A stretch of 64,000 nt of DNA, from IMG/VR virus record IMGVR_UViG_3300042900_000549, positions 1-64,000 of that record; one strand, given 5' to 3'. Position 1 is the first letter of the stretch, and each line of letters begins with the position of its first letter. The DNA comes from a virus. Below, one piece after another: positions 40,601 to 61,570 of the stretch. The position numbers and the translations under genes are program-made. The notes below the pieces were generated by a model. The model worked only from the letters and a program-made list of their open reading frames with translations, searched no databases and was not told where the DNA came from.

Positions 40601-40673
40601 GGGTCAATAACTCAGTTGGTAGAGTAGCGGGCTTTTAACCTGTAAGTCGTGAGTTCGAGTCTCACTTGACCCA
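40601..40673 (+). tRNA. trnK-UUU: tRNA-Lys (anticodon UUU)
   Basis: Cloverleaf with acceptor GGGTCAA/TTGACCC, D-loop TCAGTTGGTAGA, anticodon loop CTTTTAA, T-loop TTCGAGT, discriminator A. CCA is not encoded. It reads AAA, a favoured codon in AT-rich genes. Confidence 0.95.
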
Positions 40674-40674
40674 C

Positions 40675-40703
40675 TTGACAATTGGATCCAGAGATGGTAT
40701 GAT
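40675..40703 (+). promoter_or_regulatory. Early promoter of tRNA-Arg
   Basis: TTGACA (40675-40680) two bases after tRNA-Lys, 17-nt spacer, TATGAT (40698-40703) with extended TGG. Confidence 0.8.
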
Positions 40704-40711
40704 TGTCTTAT

Positions 40712-40784
40712 GGGCACGTAGCATAATGGATAATGCATCATCCTTCTAAGATGTCGATTGCTGGTTCGACCCCAGCCGTGCCTG
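40712..40784 (+). tRNA. trnR-UCU: tRNA-Arg (anticodon UCU)
   Basis: Acceptor GGGCACG/CGTGCCT with a G-U first pair, anticodon loop CTTCTAA, T-loop TTCGACC, discriminator G, no encoded CCA. Reads AGA, a codon much commoner in this phage than in a GC-richer host. Confidence 0.94.
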
Positions 40785-40832
40785 TTGAAGTAGTCGTTAT
40801 GCACATAGCATAGAAAGACGCTTCATATATAA

Positions 40833-40983
40833 AAGGATAGAGGTTAAGTCCCTGTTATATCCTTATGAGATATATCACACCTAATCCATCAAATCAAGAA
40901 AGTGCTGGGCAAACTTTGGAGGTTTTCTCCACTACCATTTGTGGGCTTCTGAGAACAGGAGAAATAAGGTTTGGTACTTTCTT
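40833..40983 (+). ncRNA. Structured RNA candidate between tRNA-Arg and tRNA-Gly
   Basis: No gene lies between 40785 and 41029. A hairpin AAGGATA/TATCCTT (40833-40839/40858-40864) is followed by a branched element closed by AAGAAAGT/ACTTTCTT (40896-40903/40976-40983) and CAAAC/GTTTG (40910-40914/40969-40973), enclosing GGAG/CTCC and CAC/GTG hairpins. The long-range pairing resembles a folded RNA, but no known family is recognised. Confidence 0.45.
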
Positions 40984-40991
40984 CAAAACAC

Positions 40992-41020
40992 TTGACAATC
41001 TAAGATTTATGTCTTATGAT
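40992..41020 (+). promoter_or_regulatory. Early promoter of tRNA-Gly
   Basis: TTGACA (40992-40997), 17-nt spacer, TATGAT (41015-41020). Confidence 0.8.
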
Positions 41021-41029
41021 TGTCTTATT

Positions 41030-41100
41030 GCGGGTATGGTGTAGTGGCAACACAAGAGTTTTCCAAACTTTTATCCTCGGTTCAAATCCGTGTACCCGCT
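41030..41100 (+). tRNA. trnG-UCC: tRNA-Gly (anticodon UCC)
   Basis: Acceptor GCGGGTA/TACCCGC, anticodon loop TTTCCAA, T-loop TTCAAAT, discriminator T. 71 nt, usual for tRNA-Gly. A small GAACC-ATAA-GGTTC hairpin follows at 41102-41115. Confidence 0.93.
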
Positions 41101-41119
41101 TGAACCATAAGGTTCCTAT

Positions 41120-41191
41120 TCCACAATAGTTCAGTGGTAGAACTCAAAACTGTTAATTTTGCTGTCCCTGGTTCGAATCCAGGTTGTGGAG
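41120..41191 (+). tRNA. trnN-GUU: tRNA-Asn (anticodon GUU)
   Basis: Acceptor TCCACAA/TTGTGGA, anticodon stem CAAAA/TTTTG with loop CTGTTAA, T-loop TTCGAAT, discriminator G. No own promoter is seen; it shares the tRNA-Gly transcript. Confidence 0.95.
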
Positions 41192-41193
41192 TT

Positions 41194-41201
41194 TATAAAT
41201 A
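41194..41201 (+). promoter_or_regulatory. Late promoter TATAAATA
   Basis: Exact late consensus two bases after tRNA-Asn and 22 nt before the zinc-ribbon gene at 41224. Confidence 0.65.
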
Positions 41202-41223
41202 CCCAAAGAAATATGAAAATATT

Positions 41224-41484
41224 ATGGAAAACTTACGAATTAGATGTAAATCTTGTAATAGAGAACTGGAGGGTCACCCATCAAAAACAGTTTCTTGTGG
41301 ATGTTCTAATATGGCAACTATAGTAAACAATAATAAAATTACTGCACTTAATTTGTCTAATGTGGTGATGTTAAACTCTCCACATACAAAACAAACCAAT
41401 AATGTCCTTACTAATGATGATATTATGTGGCAGGAAGCTCGAAGACAACGTAAAGTTCGCCGTTTAGACTTTGAGATTCGTTGA
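41224..41484 (+). CDS. Small zinc-ribbon-like cyanophage protein
   Basis: An 86-residue protein: MENLRIRCKSCNRELEGHPSKTVSCGC gives CxxC...CGC, a zinc-knuckle-like arrangement, followed by ALNLSNVVMLNS and a basic C-terminus. The frame is open from inside tRNA-Asn; ATG 41224, after the late promoter, is the sensible start. Function unknown. Confidence 0.7.
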   Translation: MENLRIRCKSCNRELEGHPSKTVSCGCSNMATIVNNNKITALNLSNVVMLNSPHTKQTNNVLTNDDIMWQEARRQRKVRRLDFEIR

Positions 41485-41495
41485 TGATTTTTATT

Positions 41496-41580
41496 GGAAA
41501 GGTGACCGAGCGGTTTATGGTGTTTGTCTTGAAAACAAAAGATGTGGAAGCATCCGGAGGTTCGAATCCTCTCCTTTCCG
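41496..41580 (+). tRNA. trnS-UGA: tRNA-Ser (anticodon UGA)
   Basis: Acceptor GGAAAGG/CCTTTCC, anticodon loop CTTGAAA, long variable arm GATGTGGAAGCATC as in class II tRNAs, T-loop TTCGAAT, discriminator G. Confidence 0.95.
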
Positions 41581-41637
41581 TTACATAAGATACTAAAACT
41601 CATTTAATATTATAATGTCAACACATAATACTCATAG

Positions 41638-41672
41638 TTAGTATAATAATTATACTAAATTATTAGTATAAA
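41638..41672 (+). promoter_or_regulatory. Operator-like palindrome with a third half-site
   Basis: TTAGTATAAT (41638-41647) and ATTATACTAA (41649-41658) form a perfect 21-bp palindrome; a third copy TTAGTATAAA follows at 41663-41672. The elements contain -10-like TATAAT/TATAAA but no -35 box, and lie just before the gene at 41686. Confidence 0.55.
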
Positions 41673-41685
41673 CGCACAAAACTCA

Positions 41686-41847
41686 ATGGACGATCACACT
41701 TACCAAAATTGGGTTAAGATCAAAGAAACTTTTGAATCATCCGGTAATACTAATAATATGTTTTACACAAGAGCGTGTGAAATAGTTAAAACTAAAAGAG
41801 ATCCTATGGATAAATTTTGGAATAAAAATAAACACTTGACAAATTAA
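41686..41847 (+). CDS. Small conserved-type cyanophage protein
   Basis: A 53-residue protein: MDDHTYQNWVKIKETFESSGNTNNMFYTRACEI, then KRDPMDKFW. The pattern YxNWxKxKExFExxGxTxxxFYxRA recurs in small proteins of T4-like cyanophages. Its 3' end contains the tRNA-Pro promoter -35 box. Function unknown. Confidence 0.65.
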   Translation: MDDHTYQNWVKIKETFESSGNTNNMFYTRACEIVKTKRDPMDKFWNKNKHLTN

Positions 41848-41864
41848 AGTTTTACTGCTATTAT
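41836..41864 (+). promoter_or_regulatory. Early promoter of tRNA-Pro
   Basis: TTGACA (41836-41841), 17-nt spacer, TATTAT (41859-41864) with extended TGC; the -35 box lies in the end of the preceding gene. Confidence 0.82.
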
Positions 41865-41877
41865 ACATAAAGAAATA

Positions 41878-41951
41878 CGGGCATTAGCGCAGTTTGGTAG
41901 CGCGTTCCGTTTGGGGCGGAAAAGTCAGAGGTTCAAATCCTCTATGCCCGA
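41878..41951 (+). tRNA. trnP-UGG: tRNA-Pro (anticodon UGG)
   Basis: Acceptor CGGGCAT/ATGCCCG, anticodon stem TTCCG/CGGAA with loop TTTGGGG, T-loop TTCAAAT, discriminator A. A TGCCAG/CTGGCA hairpin follows at 41953-41972. Confidence 0.95.
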
Positions 41952-42007
41952 TTGCCAGAAATTAAACTGGCACACTCAAATTTAAAACTCTTATAAATTC
42001 TATTATA

Positions 42008-42202
42008 ATGTCTACAACAATTGCTCGAGGAATGGAAAGTTTCACCGTAGAAGATTTTCAAAAACACTTTGATGAATTAATGGAACGAGTTGAGAATGGA
42101 GAGTCTTTTCTCATTACAAGCGAATATGGAAATGCAGTAATGATACCATATTGTGAATTTGACGAAGGTAGTTCTTTTTGTAATCACGACGATGGTTGCT
42201 GA
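42008..42202 (+). CDS. Phd/YefM antitoxin-like protein without a toxin
   Basis: A 64-residue protein. FTVEDFQKHFDELMERVENGESFLITSEYGNAVMIPY follows the Phd/YefM pattern (beta strand, helix ending ERVxxGE, then ITxxGxxVxVxPY). These proteins bind DNA as repressors and neutralise toxins. No toxin gene is adjacent: tRNA genes lie on both sides. It may act as an orphan repressor or block a host toxin. Confidence 0.65.
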   Translation: MSTTIARGMESFTVEDFQKHFDELMERVENGESFLITSEYGNAVMIPYCEFDEGSSFCNHDDGC

Positions 42203-42211
42203 TCCTTTTGT

Positions 42212-42285
42212 GGGAATGTAGCTCAATTGGTTAGAGCACAGACCTTATAAGTCTGAGGTTCTGGGTTCAATCCCCAGCGTTCCTA
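42212..42285 (+). tRNA. trnI-UAU: tRNA-Ile (anticodon UAU)
   Basis: Acceptor GGGAATG/CGTTCCT, anticodon stem CAGAC/GTCTG with loop CTTATAA, T-loop TTCAATC, discriminator A. UAU reads AUA, rare in most hosts but frequent in AT-rich genes. A CAU-lysidine reading is excluded since the anticodon is TAT. Confidence 0.92.
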
Positions 42286-42310
42286 TTGGACACTTTTTTC
42301 AGTGTTCTAC

Positions 42311-42574: not shown

Positions 42575-42785
42575 TAATTCTAAAGACACGGACGGTCTAT
42601 AACAGCACTGGTCGGGAGCAACCCCCTTTAGTCACGGAGAGACTCTAAAAGTACTGGTGGATCCAAAATGACCCCTCAATAGGTTTCCAATTTCCTTCAA
42701 AAATTGGTGGTGCGGATGGGATCTTACTCCCGCCTGGTTTCCAATTTCCAGTTAAAGAATTGGTGGCGAGCCTGGTAAAAACCTA
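42575..42785 (+). ncRNA. Repeat-built structured RNA candidate
   Basis: About 210 nt with no gene. The segment GGTTTCCAATTTCC...AATTGGTGG occurs twice (42682-42710 and 42737-42766), each able to fold as CCAATT/AATTGG. A GCGG...CCGC stem with inner GGGA/TCCC lies between them. TGGT(C/G)G recurs four times about 50 nt apart. It ends in a strong terminator and is read from the promoter at 42311. Confidence 0.5.
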
Positions 42786-58339: not shown

Positions 58340-58395
58340 CATAAGCAAGTCAGGGAATCCTCACATTGCTCCCGTGCTTACCGAGACTTTGCACG

Positions 58396-58402
58396 ATAAA
58401 TA
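58396..58402 (+). promoter_or_regulatory. Second late promoter motif of psbA
   Basis: ATAAATA within the psbA leader, 85 nt before the start codon. Confidence 0.4.
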
Positions 58403-58487
58403 CGTCTCTCATATCTTCTCTAGGGGTGAGAAGAAATACTGATCCTATTCGTCTCCCTACGAATTATTACTTAACCCTTTTTTACAA

Positions 58488-59807
58488 ATGACTGCTACAA
58501 TTGCTACACGCTCTAATACTAATCTATGGAATGATTTCTGTTCCTGGATTACTTCAACGAATAACAGGTTATATGTTGGGTGGTTCGGAGTCCTTATGAT
58601 TCCCTGCCTTCTCGCAGCGACTACTTGCTTCATTATTGCTTTTATTGGTGCTCCCCCTGTTGATATTGATGGGATCAGAGAACCAGTTGCTGGGTCTCTT
58701 ATGTACGGAAACAACATCATCTCTGGTGCCGTTGTTCCTTCTTCTAATGCTATCGGACTTCACTTTTATCCTATCTGGGAAGCAGCAAGTCTTGATGAAT
58801 GGCTCTATAATGGTGGTCCTTTTCAACTTGTTGTATTTCACTTCCTCATCGGCATTTATGCTTATATGGGTCGTGAATGGGAACTCTCCTATCGTCTAGG
58901 AATGCGTCCCTGGATTATGGTTGCTTACAGTGCTCCTGTTGCTGCTGCTACTGCCGTATTCCTAGTCTATCCCTTTGGTCAAGGTTCTTTCTCTGATGCT
59001 ATGCCTCTTGGAATTTCTGGAACCTTTAATTATATGCTTGTCTTCCAGGCAGAACATAACATCCTTATGCACCCCTTTCACATGTTAGGCGTCGCAGGTG
59101 TCTTCGGCGGATCACTTTTTAGCGCCATGCACGGTTCACTGGTGACTTCTTCACTGGTTCGTGAGACTACTGAAACTGAATCCCAAAACTACGGATATAA
59201 GTTCGGTCAAGAAGAAGAGACTTACAACATTGTTGCTGCACACGGTTACTTCGGTCGTCTTATTTTCCAATATGCGTCTTTCAATAACTCACGCAGTCTC
59301 CACTTCTTTCTGGCTGCCTGGCCAGTAGTTGGTATTTGGTTTACTGCTCTTGGCGTAAGCACAATGGCATTTAATCTGAACGGTTTTAATTTTAACCAGT
59401 CCATCGTTGATAGTCAAAACCGAGTAGTTCCTACTTGGGCGGACATTTTAACACGAGCAGGATTGGGTATGGAAGTGATGCACGAAAGGAACGCACATTA
59501 GTAAAATAGTGTCCTTACTGAGAAATTGGTAAGTGTAAATCGGATGAATTGCTGGAAACCCTCCAAATATAAGGGCAATCAGCATCCAAGTCTCAGATAC
59601 ATCTGAGAAAGGTTCAACGACTACCTGAGGGATATAGTTCCCTTAATAACAGGCAAGAGCGTCCGACACCTAAGTTCTAATAGAATACGGTGATGATATA
59701 GTCTTCTCCATAAGAATGGTAAACTTATGGGTCCAGAGAACTTTCCTTTAGATCTTGCATTTTTAGAATCAACCCCAGTTGCTCTAACGGCACCTACAGT
59801 AGGTTGA
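58488..59807 (+). CDS. psbA: Photosystem II D1 protein, split by a group I intron (58488-59498 and 59739-59807)
   Basis: Exon 1 encodes 337 residues to ...EVMHERNAH; exon 2 encodes [22 protein letters not shown] and stop. Joined length is 359, as for cyanobacterial D1. Key residues are present: Tyr161, His190, Asp170, and Glu130 (GREWEL), the high-light D1 form. The phage copy keeps photosystem II repaired during infection. In the unspliced reading frame a TAG follows His directly (59499-59501), so splicing is needed for the C-terminus that must bind the manganese cluster. Confidence 0.95.
59499..59738 (+). other. Group I intron in psbA
   Basis: A 240-nt intron. P1 pairs ACAT (exon end) plus TA with TAGTGT, giving the U-G pair at the 5' splice site; the last intron base is G59738. 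Conserved elements occur in order: P GAATTGCTGGAAA (59546), Q AATCAGCATCC (59577), R GTTCAACGACTA (59612), S GATATAGTCT (59695). P2 is CTTAC/GTAAG, P5 CCCT/AGGG, and P9 CCATAAG/CTTATGG. There is no reading frame inside. Confidence 0.92.
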
Positions 59808-59832
59808 TATAACTTCCAACTAATGGTATAAT
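59804..59832 (+). promoter_or_regulatory. Early promoter overlapping the psbA stop codon
   Basis: TTGATA (59804-59809, containing the psbA TGA), 17-nt spacer, TATAAT (59827-59832) with extended TGG. A terminator hairpin starts 5 nt later. Confidence 0.65.
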
Positions 59833-59836
59833 ATTG

Positions 59837-59861
59837 AGGAACTCTTCGGGGTTCCTTTTTT
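59837..59861 (+). terminator. Intrinsic terminator of psbA
   Basis: AGGAACTC (59837-59844), TTCG tetraloop, GGGTTCCT (59849-59856), then a T-run. Confidence 0.93.
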
Positions 59862-59899: not shown

Positions 59900-60634
59900 A
59901 TGAAAAATGTATTTTACACTTATGCTTATTTGAGGGAGGATGGAACTCCTTATTATATTGGTAAGGGTAAAGGTAAAAGAGCATATGATAGAAAAAGGCA
60001 TAGTGCTTATGTCCCATCAAGAAATAGGATTTTAATATTAAAGAAAAATCTTACTGAAGATGAAGCATTTATTCACGAAATTTATATGATTTCAATCTTT
60101 GGTAGAAAAGATTTGGAAACTGGTATTCTTTATAATCTAACAGATGGTGGAGATGGACCTTCTGGATATGTTTATACAGAAGAACAAAGGAAAAAAATGG
60201 GAGATATGCGTAGAGGAAAGAAGAGACCAAGACAAAGTAAGATTATGAAGGAAAAAAATCATTTACAAATAGTGAATGAAAATAAAATAAACGAATTGAG
60301 AAAAAATTGTCCACCAGAAAAAATTGCTGAACTTTATATTGAGGGTAAAACTCTTAGAGAAATAAAATCAATTTTGGGATGTGGGATGGTTTGGATTAGA
60401 AAATCATTGGATGAAATGGAAGTTAAAATAAGACATAGAAACGACTATGGAAATCCTATGAACGACAAAGAAGTTAGAGATAAAATTTCTCAAAAAGCAA
60501 TAGAAAGAGGTGCTTGGTCTGGGGATAAAAATCCAAATTCAGGGGAAGGTATTTGTAGGGATAAAATAATACAAAGAACAAAAGAAGTAAATACTGGAAA
60601 ACAAAATTGGAAGTATAGGAAACCTAAAAACTAA
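59900..60634 (+). CDS. GIY-YIG homing endonuclease downstream of psbA
   Basis: A 244-residue protein. [30 protein letters not shown] is the GIY-YIG core, with the Glu-containing helix ([17 protein letters not shown]) and a C-terminal DNA-binding part with NUMOD3-like Gly/Lys-rich segments ([22 protein letters not shown]). ATG 59900 follows the late promoter; an upstream TTG lies in the terminator. In another cyanophage a psbA-linked endonuclease (F-CphI) drives spread of the psbA intron; this gene could do the same but is GIY-YIG type by sequence. Confidence 0.82.
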
Positions 60635-60635
60635 A

Positions 60636-60704
60636 ATGCTAATAATCCTCACAGTCTTCCAAGTATTCGGATTCTTCCTCTTCATAATGTCTCTGCTCTC
60701 TTGA
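60636..60704 (+). CDS. 22-residue hydrophobic micro-ORF
   Basis: MLIILTVFQVFGFFLFIMSL then LS: almost wholly a transmembrane helix. It starts one base after the endonuclease stop, and its TGA lies inside the next -35 box (TTGACG). No ribosome site; could be chance. Confidence 0.3.
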   Translation: MLIILTVFQVFGFFLFIMSLLS

Positions 60705-60729
60705 CGCCATTCAATAAGACTGCTATAAT
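60701..60729 (+). promoter_or_regulatory. Early promoter of the terminase fragment (repeat copy 1)
   Basis: TTGACG (60701-60706), 17-nt spacer, TATAAT (60724-60729) with extended TGC. Nearly the same sequence recurs at 61517-61570. Confidence 0.85.
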
Positions 60730-60755
60730 ACGCACAAAGACACAAAACAATTATG
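60701..60755 (+). repeat. Direct repeat copy 1 (promoter and leader)
   Basis: About 54 bp from TTGACGCCATTCAATAAGAC through TATAATAC, CACAAAG and CAAAACAATTATG. Copy 2 at 61517-61570 differs at few positions. The two copies bracket the terminase fragment. Confidence 0.85.
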
Positions 60756-61520
60756 ACTGAATTCACACAAGAACAAGTAGAAGAATTTAATAAATGCAAA
60801 AATGACCCAGTATATTTCATTAACAATTATGTGAAATTTGTAACTATTGATAAGGGACTCACAGACTTCAAACTCTATCCCTATCAAGAAGACCTGATTA
60901 ATAAGTATCATAACAACCGCTTCAATATATGTAAAAGTTCAAGACAAGTAGGTAAAACTTCAACTGGTCTCTTCTATGTTTTACATCACATAATTTTTAA
61001 TGATAATGTGACTGATGGGATATTCTCCTTTAATACATTAAATGCTCGTAATAGTTTACAAAGATTAATGACTGCTTATGAAAATCTTCCAGAATGGATG
61101 CAACATAAGGTTATCATTAAGAATAAGTCCACATTAGAATTGGAGAATGGTTCTAGAGTTATTGTAGGTAATACAACATATAATAGTTTCAAGGGTCGGA
61201 TGTTTAATCTTACCTTCCTAGATGAGTTTGCATTTGTTCCAGATAAAGATGCACAGAGCGTAGTAGATATAATGCTCCCTATGTTTACTGCAAATAAATC
61301 TAGTAAAGTCGTCATTGCATCTTCATTTAAACCTAAAGATAACTGCTTCAATAAAATCTGGAAAGACTCTGAAGATGGTAAGAATTCTTTTGTAAGAACT
61401 ACAATCAAATGGTATGAGATTCCAGGGAGGGATGAAGAATGGAAAGAACAGATGATTGCTAATATAGGTATTGATGCCTGGAATCAGGAATTTGAATGTG
61501 AGTCTGCAGAGAACCCTTGA
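60753..61520 (+). CDS. ATPase-only fragment of a gp17-like terminase large subunit
   Basis: A 255-residue protein matching only the N-terminal ATPase half of T4-like terminase (usually about 540-600 residues). DPVYFINNYVKFVTIDKGLTDFKLYPYQEDLI, Walker A SSRQVGKTS, the coupling region SFKGRMFNLTFLDEFAF (Walker B) and SSFKPKDNCF are seen. It stops after QEFECES, before the nuclease domain. Full gp17 normally lies upstream of gp18-19-20, outside this window, so this is an extra copy or domesticated fragment. Stop TGA lies in the next -35 box. Confidence 0.85.
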   Translation: MTEFTQEQVEEFNKCKNDPVYFINNYVKFVTIDKGLTDFKLYPYQEDLINKYHNNRFNICKSSRQVGKTSTGLFYVLHHIIFNDNVTDGIFSFNTLNARNSLQRLMTAYENLPEWMQHKVIIKNKSTLELENGSRVIVGNTTYNSFKGRMFNLTFLDEFAFVPDKDAQSVVDIMLPMFTANKSSKVVIASSFKPKDNCFNKIWKDSEDGKNSFVRTTIKWYEIPGRDEEWKEQMIANIGIDAWNQEFECESAENP

Positions 61521-61570
61521 CGCCATTCAATAAGACGCCTATAATACTCACAAAGTCGCAAAACATTATG
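61517..61570 (+). repeat. Direct repeat copy 2 (promoter and leader)
   Basis: Second copy, with TTGACG (61517-61522), 17-nt spacer and TATAAT (61540-61545). It is the promoter of the gene at 61568 and shares the first 20 bases exactly with copy 1. Confidence 0.85.

What the first reader, a model, noticed from the sequence alone, without database searches (positions are those of the whole stretch)
60701..61570. Terminase ATPase fragment bracketed by direct repeats of its own promoter
Seen: a 255-residue gp17-like protein with Walker A and B but no nuclease half, between two ~54-bp copies of the same promoter-leader (first 20 bases identical). Known: gp17 is two-domain and is normally encoded before gp18-20. 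Inference: this is a gene cassette that can be gained or lost by recombination between promoter copies, and the fragment may have a new role (packaging interference with rival phages, or motor regulation).
Basis: partly seen in the sequence, partly recalled or inferred. Interest (0 to 1): 0.68.

Follow-up and report, generated by a model that had tools for sequence, protein, structure and literature searches.

The report
Nuclease-less copy of phage packaging motor
A photosynthesis-gene-carrying cyanobacterial virus has, next to that gene, a shortened second copy of its DNA-packaging motor that keeps the ATP-burning half and lacks the DNA-cutting half; related viruses keep the same shortened gene under selection at the same place, so it is a real accessory protein of still unknown target.

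Summary
ORF 60753-61520 (255 aa) is a complete gp17-type ATPase domain (AlphaFold pLDDT 91.5; best structural match T4 gp17, 2o0h) with no nuclease half. It lies between two promoter copies (45/50 identical; only two in the 83.7-kb contig).

It is not a one-off. Four further phage lineages carry the same ATPase-only gene, always about 0.8-1.0 kb downstream of psbA. The five form one clade apart from 50 gp17 ATPase domains. dN/dS is 0.18-0.37. One of these phages also encodes an intact 562-aa gp17.

The recombination-cassette idea is partly supported. Relatives without the gene have a single promoter copy that looks like a hybrid of the two, and one relative keeps a decayed second copy at the same boundary. 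But three lineages keep the gene without flanking repeats, and no deletion variant was seen.

The paralogs end within 1-2 residues of the site (EFE|CEFLG) where a split intein plus endonuclease gene breaks gp17 in three other phages. I infer origin from a gp17 end broken at that homing site.

Best reading: a domesticated, probably early-expressed, translocation-incapable TerL ATPase acting as decoy or competitor for a TerL partner; the partner is untested.

The parts
60753..61520 (+). ATPase-only gp17 (TerL) paralog, 255 aa
   Evidence: AlphaFold pLDDT 91.5, best structural match T4 gp17 2o0h TMq 0.90
60939..60959 (+). Walker A SRQVGKT (residues 63-69) with the residue aligned to the T4 arginine finger (R64)
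   Evidence: invariant R64, G67, K68 in gp17 and all paralogs
61209..61226 (+). Walker B and catalytic carboxylate LTFLDE (residues 153-158)
61317..61325 (+). altered C-motif region: ASS where gp17 has STP(xG) / T4 has TTT
61497..61520 (+). end of gp17 homology (Cys249) and short tail ESAENP with the stop inside promoter 2; the gp17 split-intein insertion site of relatives lies at E248|C249
60701..60729 (+). promoter copy 1, TTGACG-17-TATAAT
61517..61545 (+). promoter copy 2, TTGACG-17-TATAAT
60700..60749 (+). direct repeat, copy 1 (50 nt)
61516..61565 (+). direct repeat, copy 2 (90% identical)
60636..60704 (+). 22-codon leader ORF (MLIILTVFQVFGFFLFIMSLLS) upstream of promoter 1; related leader elements recur in the contig at 65572 and in relatives L084, L085, L086, L006, L174
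61568..61786 (+). 72-aa gene served by promoter 2 (MKATEFCYWLQG...)
59900..60634 (+). GIY-YIG-like putative homing endonuclease gene between psbA and promoter 1 (PHROG hit to a homing endonuclease family; no Pfam hit)
58488..59501 (+). psbA exon 1 (short second exon near 59738-59806)
   Evidence: intron by Rfam; exon 2 read from the sequence
59489..59722 (+). group I intron near the 3' end of psbA
   Evidence: Rfam RF00028, E=3.6e-21

Best explanation
The gene is a domesticated, single-domain paralog of the gp17 packaging motor, not a broken gp17. Shown: it is a complete TerL ATPase domain; it forms one clade in five cyanophage lineages at the same place downstream of psbA; it is under purifying selection; it has a strong sigma-70-type promoter match. 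It keeps the nucleotide pocket (Q45, R64, G67, K68, D157, usually E158) and has lost the nuclease/translocation half, the conserved Asn-Lys at positions 93-94 and the P and G of the STPxG coupling motif. Inferred: it is made early, binds and perhaps hydrolyses ATP, cannot move or cut DNA, and works by occupying a TerL-binding partner (gp17 ring, TerS, portal, or a host receptor that senses TerL) as a decoy or competitor. Also inferred: it arose when a gp17 gene broken at the split-intein homing site in its linker was joined to the mobile leader-promoter module behind psbA, which left the promoter on both sides; recombination between such modules can later remove or exchange the gene.
For: One clade of the five psbA-locus paralogs (97/88), set apart from 50 gp17 domains (100/98). 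dN/dS 0.18-0.37 in all pairs, including the recent pair L174-L250 (dS 0.25). Same position in all five: the paralog starts about 0.84-1.04 kb after psbA. A paralog-specific DNA pattern finds exactly these lineages in IMG/VR. The L006 phage also has an intact 562-aa gp17, only 37% identical to its paralog, so the paralog is an extra gene. Fold complete. Motif losses. In T4 the isolated ATPase domain keeps ATPase activity but cannot translocate (PMC9958956), and inactive subunits slow and fail motors (PMC8589836), so a dud subunit would have an effect. Split intein plus endonuclease gene at the same linker residue in L239, G009 and Vibrio phage Va1. Shared junction tail in window and L174.
Against: No partner, expression or activity data. 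Early timing rests on a promoter consensus only. L250 has lost the last ~28 residues and L174 has D for the catalytic E, so activity may not be kept everywhere. The end point is also the natural domain boundary, so its match with the intein site may be coincidence. An accessory gene in few lineages could be near-neutral baggage with slow decay. The microhomology (AATGT; TCTGC) at the junction is short.
Confidence: 0.45

Rival explanations
1. Relic of selfish DNA: a gp17 5' piece carried along with homing endonucleases and promoter modules into the psbA region, with no present function.
For: An endonuclease gene adjoins the site in four of the five lineages (GIY-YIG-like, HNH or other); homology ends at a homing (split-intein) site; L250 is truncated; no homolog above 60% identity in 50,697 phage records.
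Against: dN/dS 0.18-0.37 over dS 0.25-1.4, intact frames of 230-301 aa in all five lineages, promoter-like site upstream, core ATP-site residues kept.
Confidence: 0.22
2. Packaging-motor regulator or partner of its own phage: a hetero-subunit in the gp17 ring or a TerS/portal-binding timing factor.
For: ATPase fold and arginine finger kept; T4 motors tolerate dud subunits with slower packaging (PMC8589836).
Against: Early-type promoter and location among psbA-linked genes, not beside gp16-gp18; found in few cyanophages; in T4 the portal-interacting region is associated with the hinge (PMC9958956), which the fragment lacks.
Confidence: 0.15
3. Half of a split terminase: the ATPase half is joined to a nuclease half by RNA or protein splicing.
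For: gp17 is split by trans-splicing inteins at this very residue in L239, G009 and Vibrio phage Va1.
Against: The tail is only ESAENP/KFT/KEL, with no intein-N segment; no nuclease half in the 83.7-kb contig; the L006 phage has an intact gp17; the true gp17N of L239 groups with gp17, not with the paralogs.
Confidence: 0.03
4. Plain early-promoter cassette shuffling: gene content between promoter copies is gained and lost by homologous recombination, whatever the gene does. (Not exclusive with the best explanation.)
For: Single-copy hybrid-like promoters in L084 and L086; the same promoter family in tandem in L177; leader repeats in L084 and L085.
Against: The gene is kept in three lineages without intact flanking repeats; no deletion variant among five near-identical contigs. 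Explains mobility, not retention.
Confidence: 0.3

Closest known systems
T4 gp17 / cyanophage gp17 (TerL), ATPase domain
   Same: Fold (TMq 0.90 to 2o0h), Walker A with arginine finger, Walker B, domain limits
   Different: No hinge, no RNase H-like nuclease, altered Asn-Lys and C-motif, elsewhere in the genome, separate clade
PeSL promoter-early stem-loop cassettes of T4-like phages (Arbiol 2010, Comeau 2014; known here only through PMC4503421)
   Same: Repeated early-type promoter at module boundaries in a plastic region
   Different: No stem-loop at either copy (z -0.13 and 0.18); a 22-codon leader ORF instead. A promoter plus hairpin does sit nearby at 59804-59857
Fractured genes with split inteins (Dassa 2009, cited in PMC10448857)
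   Same: ATPase half ends at the residue where gp17 is fractured in L239, G009 and Va1
   Different: No intein-N tail and no partner half
Collaborative homing / HEG islands near terminase (PMC10448857) and the cyanophage S-PM2 endonuclease F-CphI (PMC6083498)
   Same: Endonuclease gene just downstream of an intron-bearing psbA
   Different: The endonuclease here is GIY-YIG-like, and a terminase paralog follows
PHROG 5989 (347-column terminase large-subunit profile)
   Same: Best PHROG match; the profile covers gp17N to just past the linker
   Different: Members not inspected; it matches a true gp17 N-half better (L239 gp17N, E=1.1e-57)

Membership tests
TerL large terminase (T4 gp17 type) | N-terminal ATPase domain with Walker A, arginine finger, Walker B | tested here: met
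TerL large terminase (T4 gp17 type) | C-terminal RNase H-like nuclease/translocation domain | tested here: not met
   281 residues missing; none in the contig
TerL large terminase (T4 gp17 type) | coupling C-motif (TTT in T4, STPxG in cyanophage gp17) | tested here: inconclusive
   ASS or STK in paralogs; S190 kept, P and G lost
TerL large terminase (T4 gp17 type) | gene in the head/packaging module before gp18 | tested here: not met
   psbA region in all five lineages; only the distant L239b lies before gp18
TerL large terminase (T4 gp17 type) | ATPase activity and DNA packaging | not testable with these tools
   needs biochemistry
PeSL cassette | early promoter repeated at module boundaries | tested here: met
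   (promoter by consensus only)
PeSL cassette | stem-loop terminator joined to the promoter | tested here: not met
   no significant fold at either copy
PeSL cassette | recombination between copies exchanges modules | tested here: inconclusive
   single-copy hybrid-like sites in L084/L086; no direct recombinants
Fractured gp17 half | intein-N segment at the C-terminus | tested here: not met
   tail of 3-12 aa after the homology end versus ~26-33 aa in L239, L255 and Va1
Fractured gp17 half | partner half with intein-C in the same genome | tested here: inconclusive
   absent from the 83.7-kb contig, which is incomplete; intact gp17 in the L006 phage
Decoy for TerL-sensing immunity (Avs type) | binds the receptor without activating it | not testable with these tools
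   only a structural hint: the model matches the TerL bound by Avs3 in 8dgc; Avs1-4 recognise TerL, portal or another phage protein (PMC12931631)

The most novel reading that the evidence does not exclude
A new class of phage counter-defence or competition protein: a TerL ATPase domain born at a split-intein homing site, re-timed to early expression, which acts as a non-translocating TerL decoy against TerL-sensing host immune receptors (Avs type) or against the motors of co-infecting phages and satellites.
Probability: 0.13. Interest if true: 0.85.

Novelty: new variant of a known kind. Interest (0 to 1): 0.52.

Why it matters
TerL is one of the most conserved phage proteins, a motor and a target of bacterial immunity. 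A selected, translocation-incapable TerL domain kept as a separate gene by several cyanophages gives a natural dominant-negative or decoy to test. The coincidence of its end point with a split-intein homing site suggests a route by which homing endonucleases create new single-domain genes from essential multi-domain ones.

Tried and rejected
Chance repeat: rejected. Assembly artefact: rejected, five contigs agree. Duplicate of its own phage's gp17: not supported; in the L006 phage, paralog and gp17 share only 37%, and the tree separates them. Split terminase: see rivals. Promoter-leader in isolate phages: no blastn match. Known defence family: no PADLOC hit. GTDB genomes: no match to the paralog pattern. 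Alignment-based IMG/VR searches A1 and A3 were swamped by true gp17; paralog-specific DNA patterns worked better. The two PeSL papers were not held. The distant ATPase-only ORF L239b falls outside the clade on a very long branch, so it is not counted as a member.

Full report
What is there. ORF 60753-61520 (+) encodes 255 aa with a Terminase_6N domain. Against ~549-aa cyanophage gp17 it aligns from residue 3 to 250, and 281 more residues follow in gp17, so the whole nuclease half is absent. It matches T4 gp17 best (2o0h, TMq 0.90). The ORF lies between two 50-nt repeats, 45/50 identical, each with an 11/12 sigma-70-type promoter match. There is no third copy in the 83.7-kb contig, and chance is excluded. 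In both copies the TGA inside TTGAC ends the upstream reading frame: a 22-codon leader ORF at copy 1 and the terminase paralog at copy 2 (read from the sequence).

A family, not a lone fragment. IMG/VR holds four near-identical contigs of this phage and four more lineages with an ATPase-only ORF of the same clade: L006 (301 aa, 68% identical), L174 (261 aa), L177 (254 aa) and L250/L251 (230 aa, truncated). A paralog-specific DNA pattern recovers exactly these contigs. In all five the gene lies about 0.84-1.04 kb behind psbA (for L006 estimated from the alignment with the window). The tree puts the five together (97/88) and gp17 domains apart (100/98). Pairwise dN/dS is 0.18-0.37. The L006 phage also has an intact 562-aa gp17, so the paralog is additional. 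Compared with gp17, paralogs keep Q45, R64, G67, K68, D157 and mostly E158, but lose the conserved N93-K94 (K94 is kept in L006 only) and the P and G of STPxG; four of five have one extra residue in the P-loop. This is what a nucleotide-binding but non-translocating protein would look like (inference); the isolated T4 ATPase domain keeps ATPase activity but not translocation (PMC9958956).

Repeats and mobility. Relatives without the paralog carry the first 20 bases of the promoter once (L084, L085, L086, L089); in L085 and L089 the rest of the promoter differs. In L084 and L086 the single copy looks like copy 1 at its 5' side and copy 2 at its 3' side. L174 has the promoter upstream, and its ORF end runs through the same tail, GAGTCTGCAGAGA(A)CCCTTGA, into a decayed second copy. 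Bracketing is therefore probably ancestral to at least window and L174. L006, L177 and L250 lack an intact second copy. The leader element recurs elsewhere: at 65572 in this contig and twice each in L084 and L085. The picture is a plastic region in which leader-promoter units punctuate small genes and endonuclease genes. It works like the PeSL cassettes of T4-like phages but lacks their stem-loop here.

Where it came from (inference). In L239, G009 and Vibrio phage Va1, gp17 is itself fractured at the ATPase/nuclease linker by a split intein with an endonuclease gene between the halves. In G009 the joint is FKVEFE|CEFLGS. Paralog homology to gp17 ends at that C or one residue later. A gp17 end cut at the homing site and joined to the leader-promoter (short homologies AATGT and TCTGC) would give the observed structure. 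The same point is the domain boundary, so the coincidence is suggestive and not proof.

What it does. Rarity, a strong early-type promoter match and location among psbA-linked genes argue for an accessory, conditional role rather than a part of the normal motor. I favour a TerL decoy or competitor. Possible partners are a rival or own gp17/TerS/portal assembly (dud subunits impair T4 motors, PMC8589836) or a TerL-sensing receptor of the Avs type (PMC12931631; structural hit 8dgc). None was testable here. A selfish relic without function is the main rival and is disfavoured by dN/dS.

Noticed in passing
L239:10-3285; L338:3-3026 (G009); L339:1565-4982 (Vibrio phage Va1): gp17 fractured at the ATPase/nuclease linker by a split intein with an endonuclease gene between the halves, in three T4-like phages; in Va1 it is annotated as two separate terminases.
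   Followed up: partly
L255:488-2377 (G009): The same gp17 also carries what looks like a full intein inside the Walker A motif (MPRQTGKS|LALDTPI...FIPTHN|STT).
   Followed up: no
L239:3319-4089: A second, very divergent ATPase-only gp17-like ORF (256 aa) between gp17 and gp18; on a long branch outside the psbA-locus clade.
   Followed up: partly
window 59489-59722 and 59900-60634: Group I intron near the 3' end of psbA with a GIY-YIG-like endonuclease gene just downstream, a layout like the collaborative homing known at S-PM2 psbA but with another nuclease family; L006 psbA appears to carry several introns.
   Followed up: partly
window 59804-59857: A promoter-like site overlapping the psbA stop codon followed at once by a strong hairpin terminator (z -3.0): a PeSL-like element between psbA and the endonuclease gene.
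   Followed up: partly
L006:9622-10527: The paralog of this phage has a ~50-aa N-terminal extension (NAQRWAKEFVELYGGDEDLMLSWFANAIMCGWDN...), which may be a fused small cyanophage gene.
   Followed up: no
window 42679-42777 and 58361-58447: Rfam wcaG and PhotoRC-II cis-regulatory RNA motifs; seven tRNA genes at 40601-42286.
   Followed up: no
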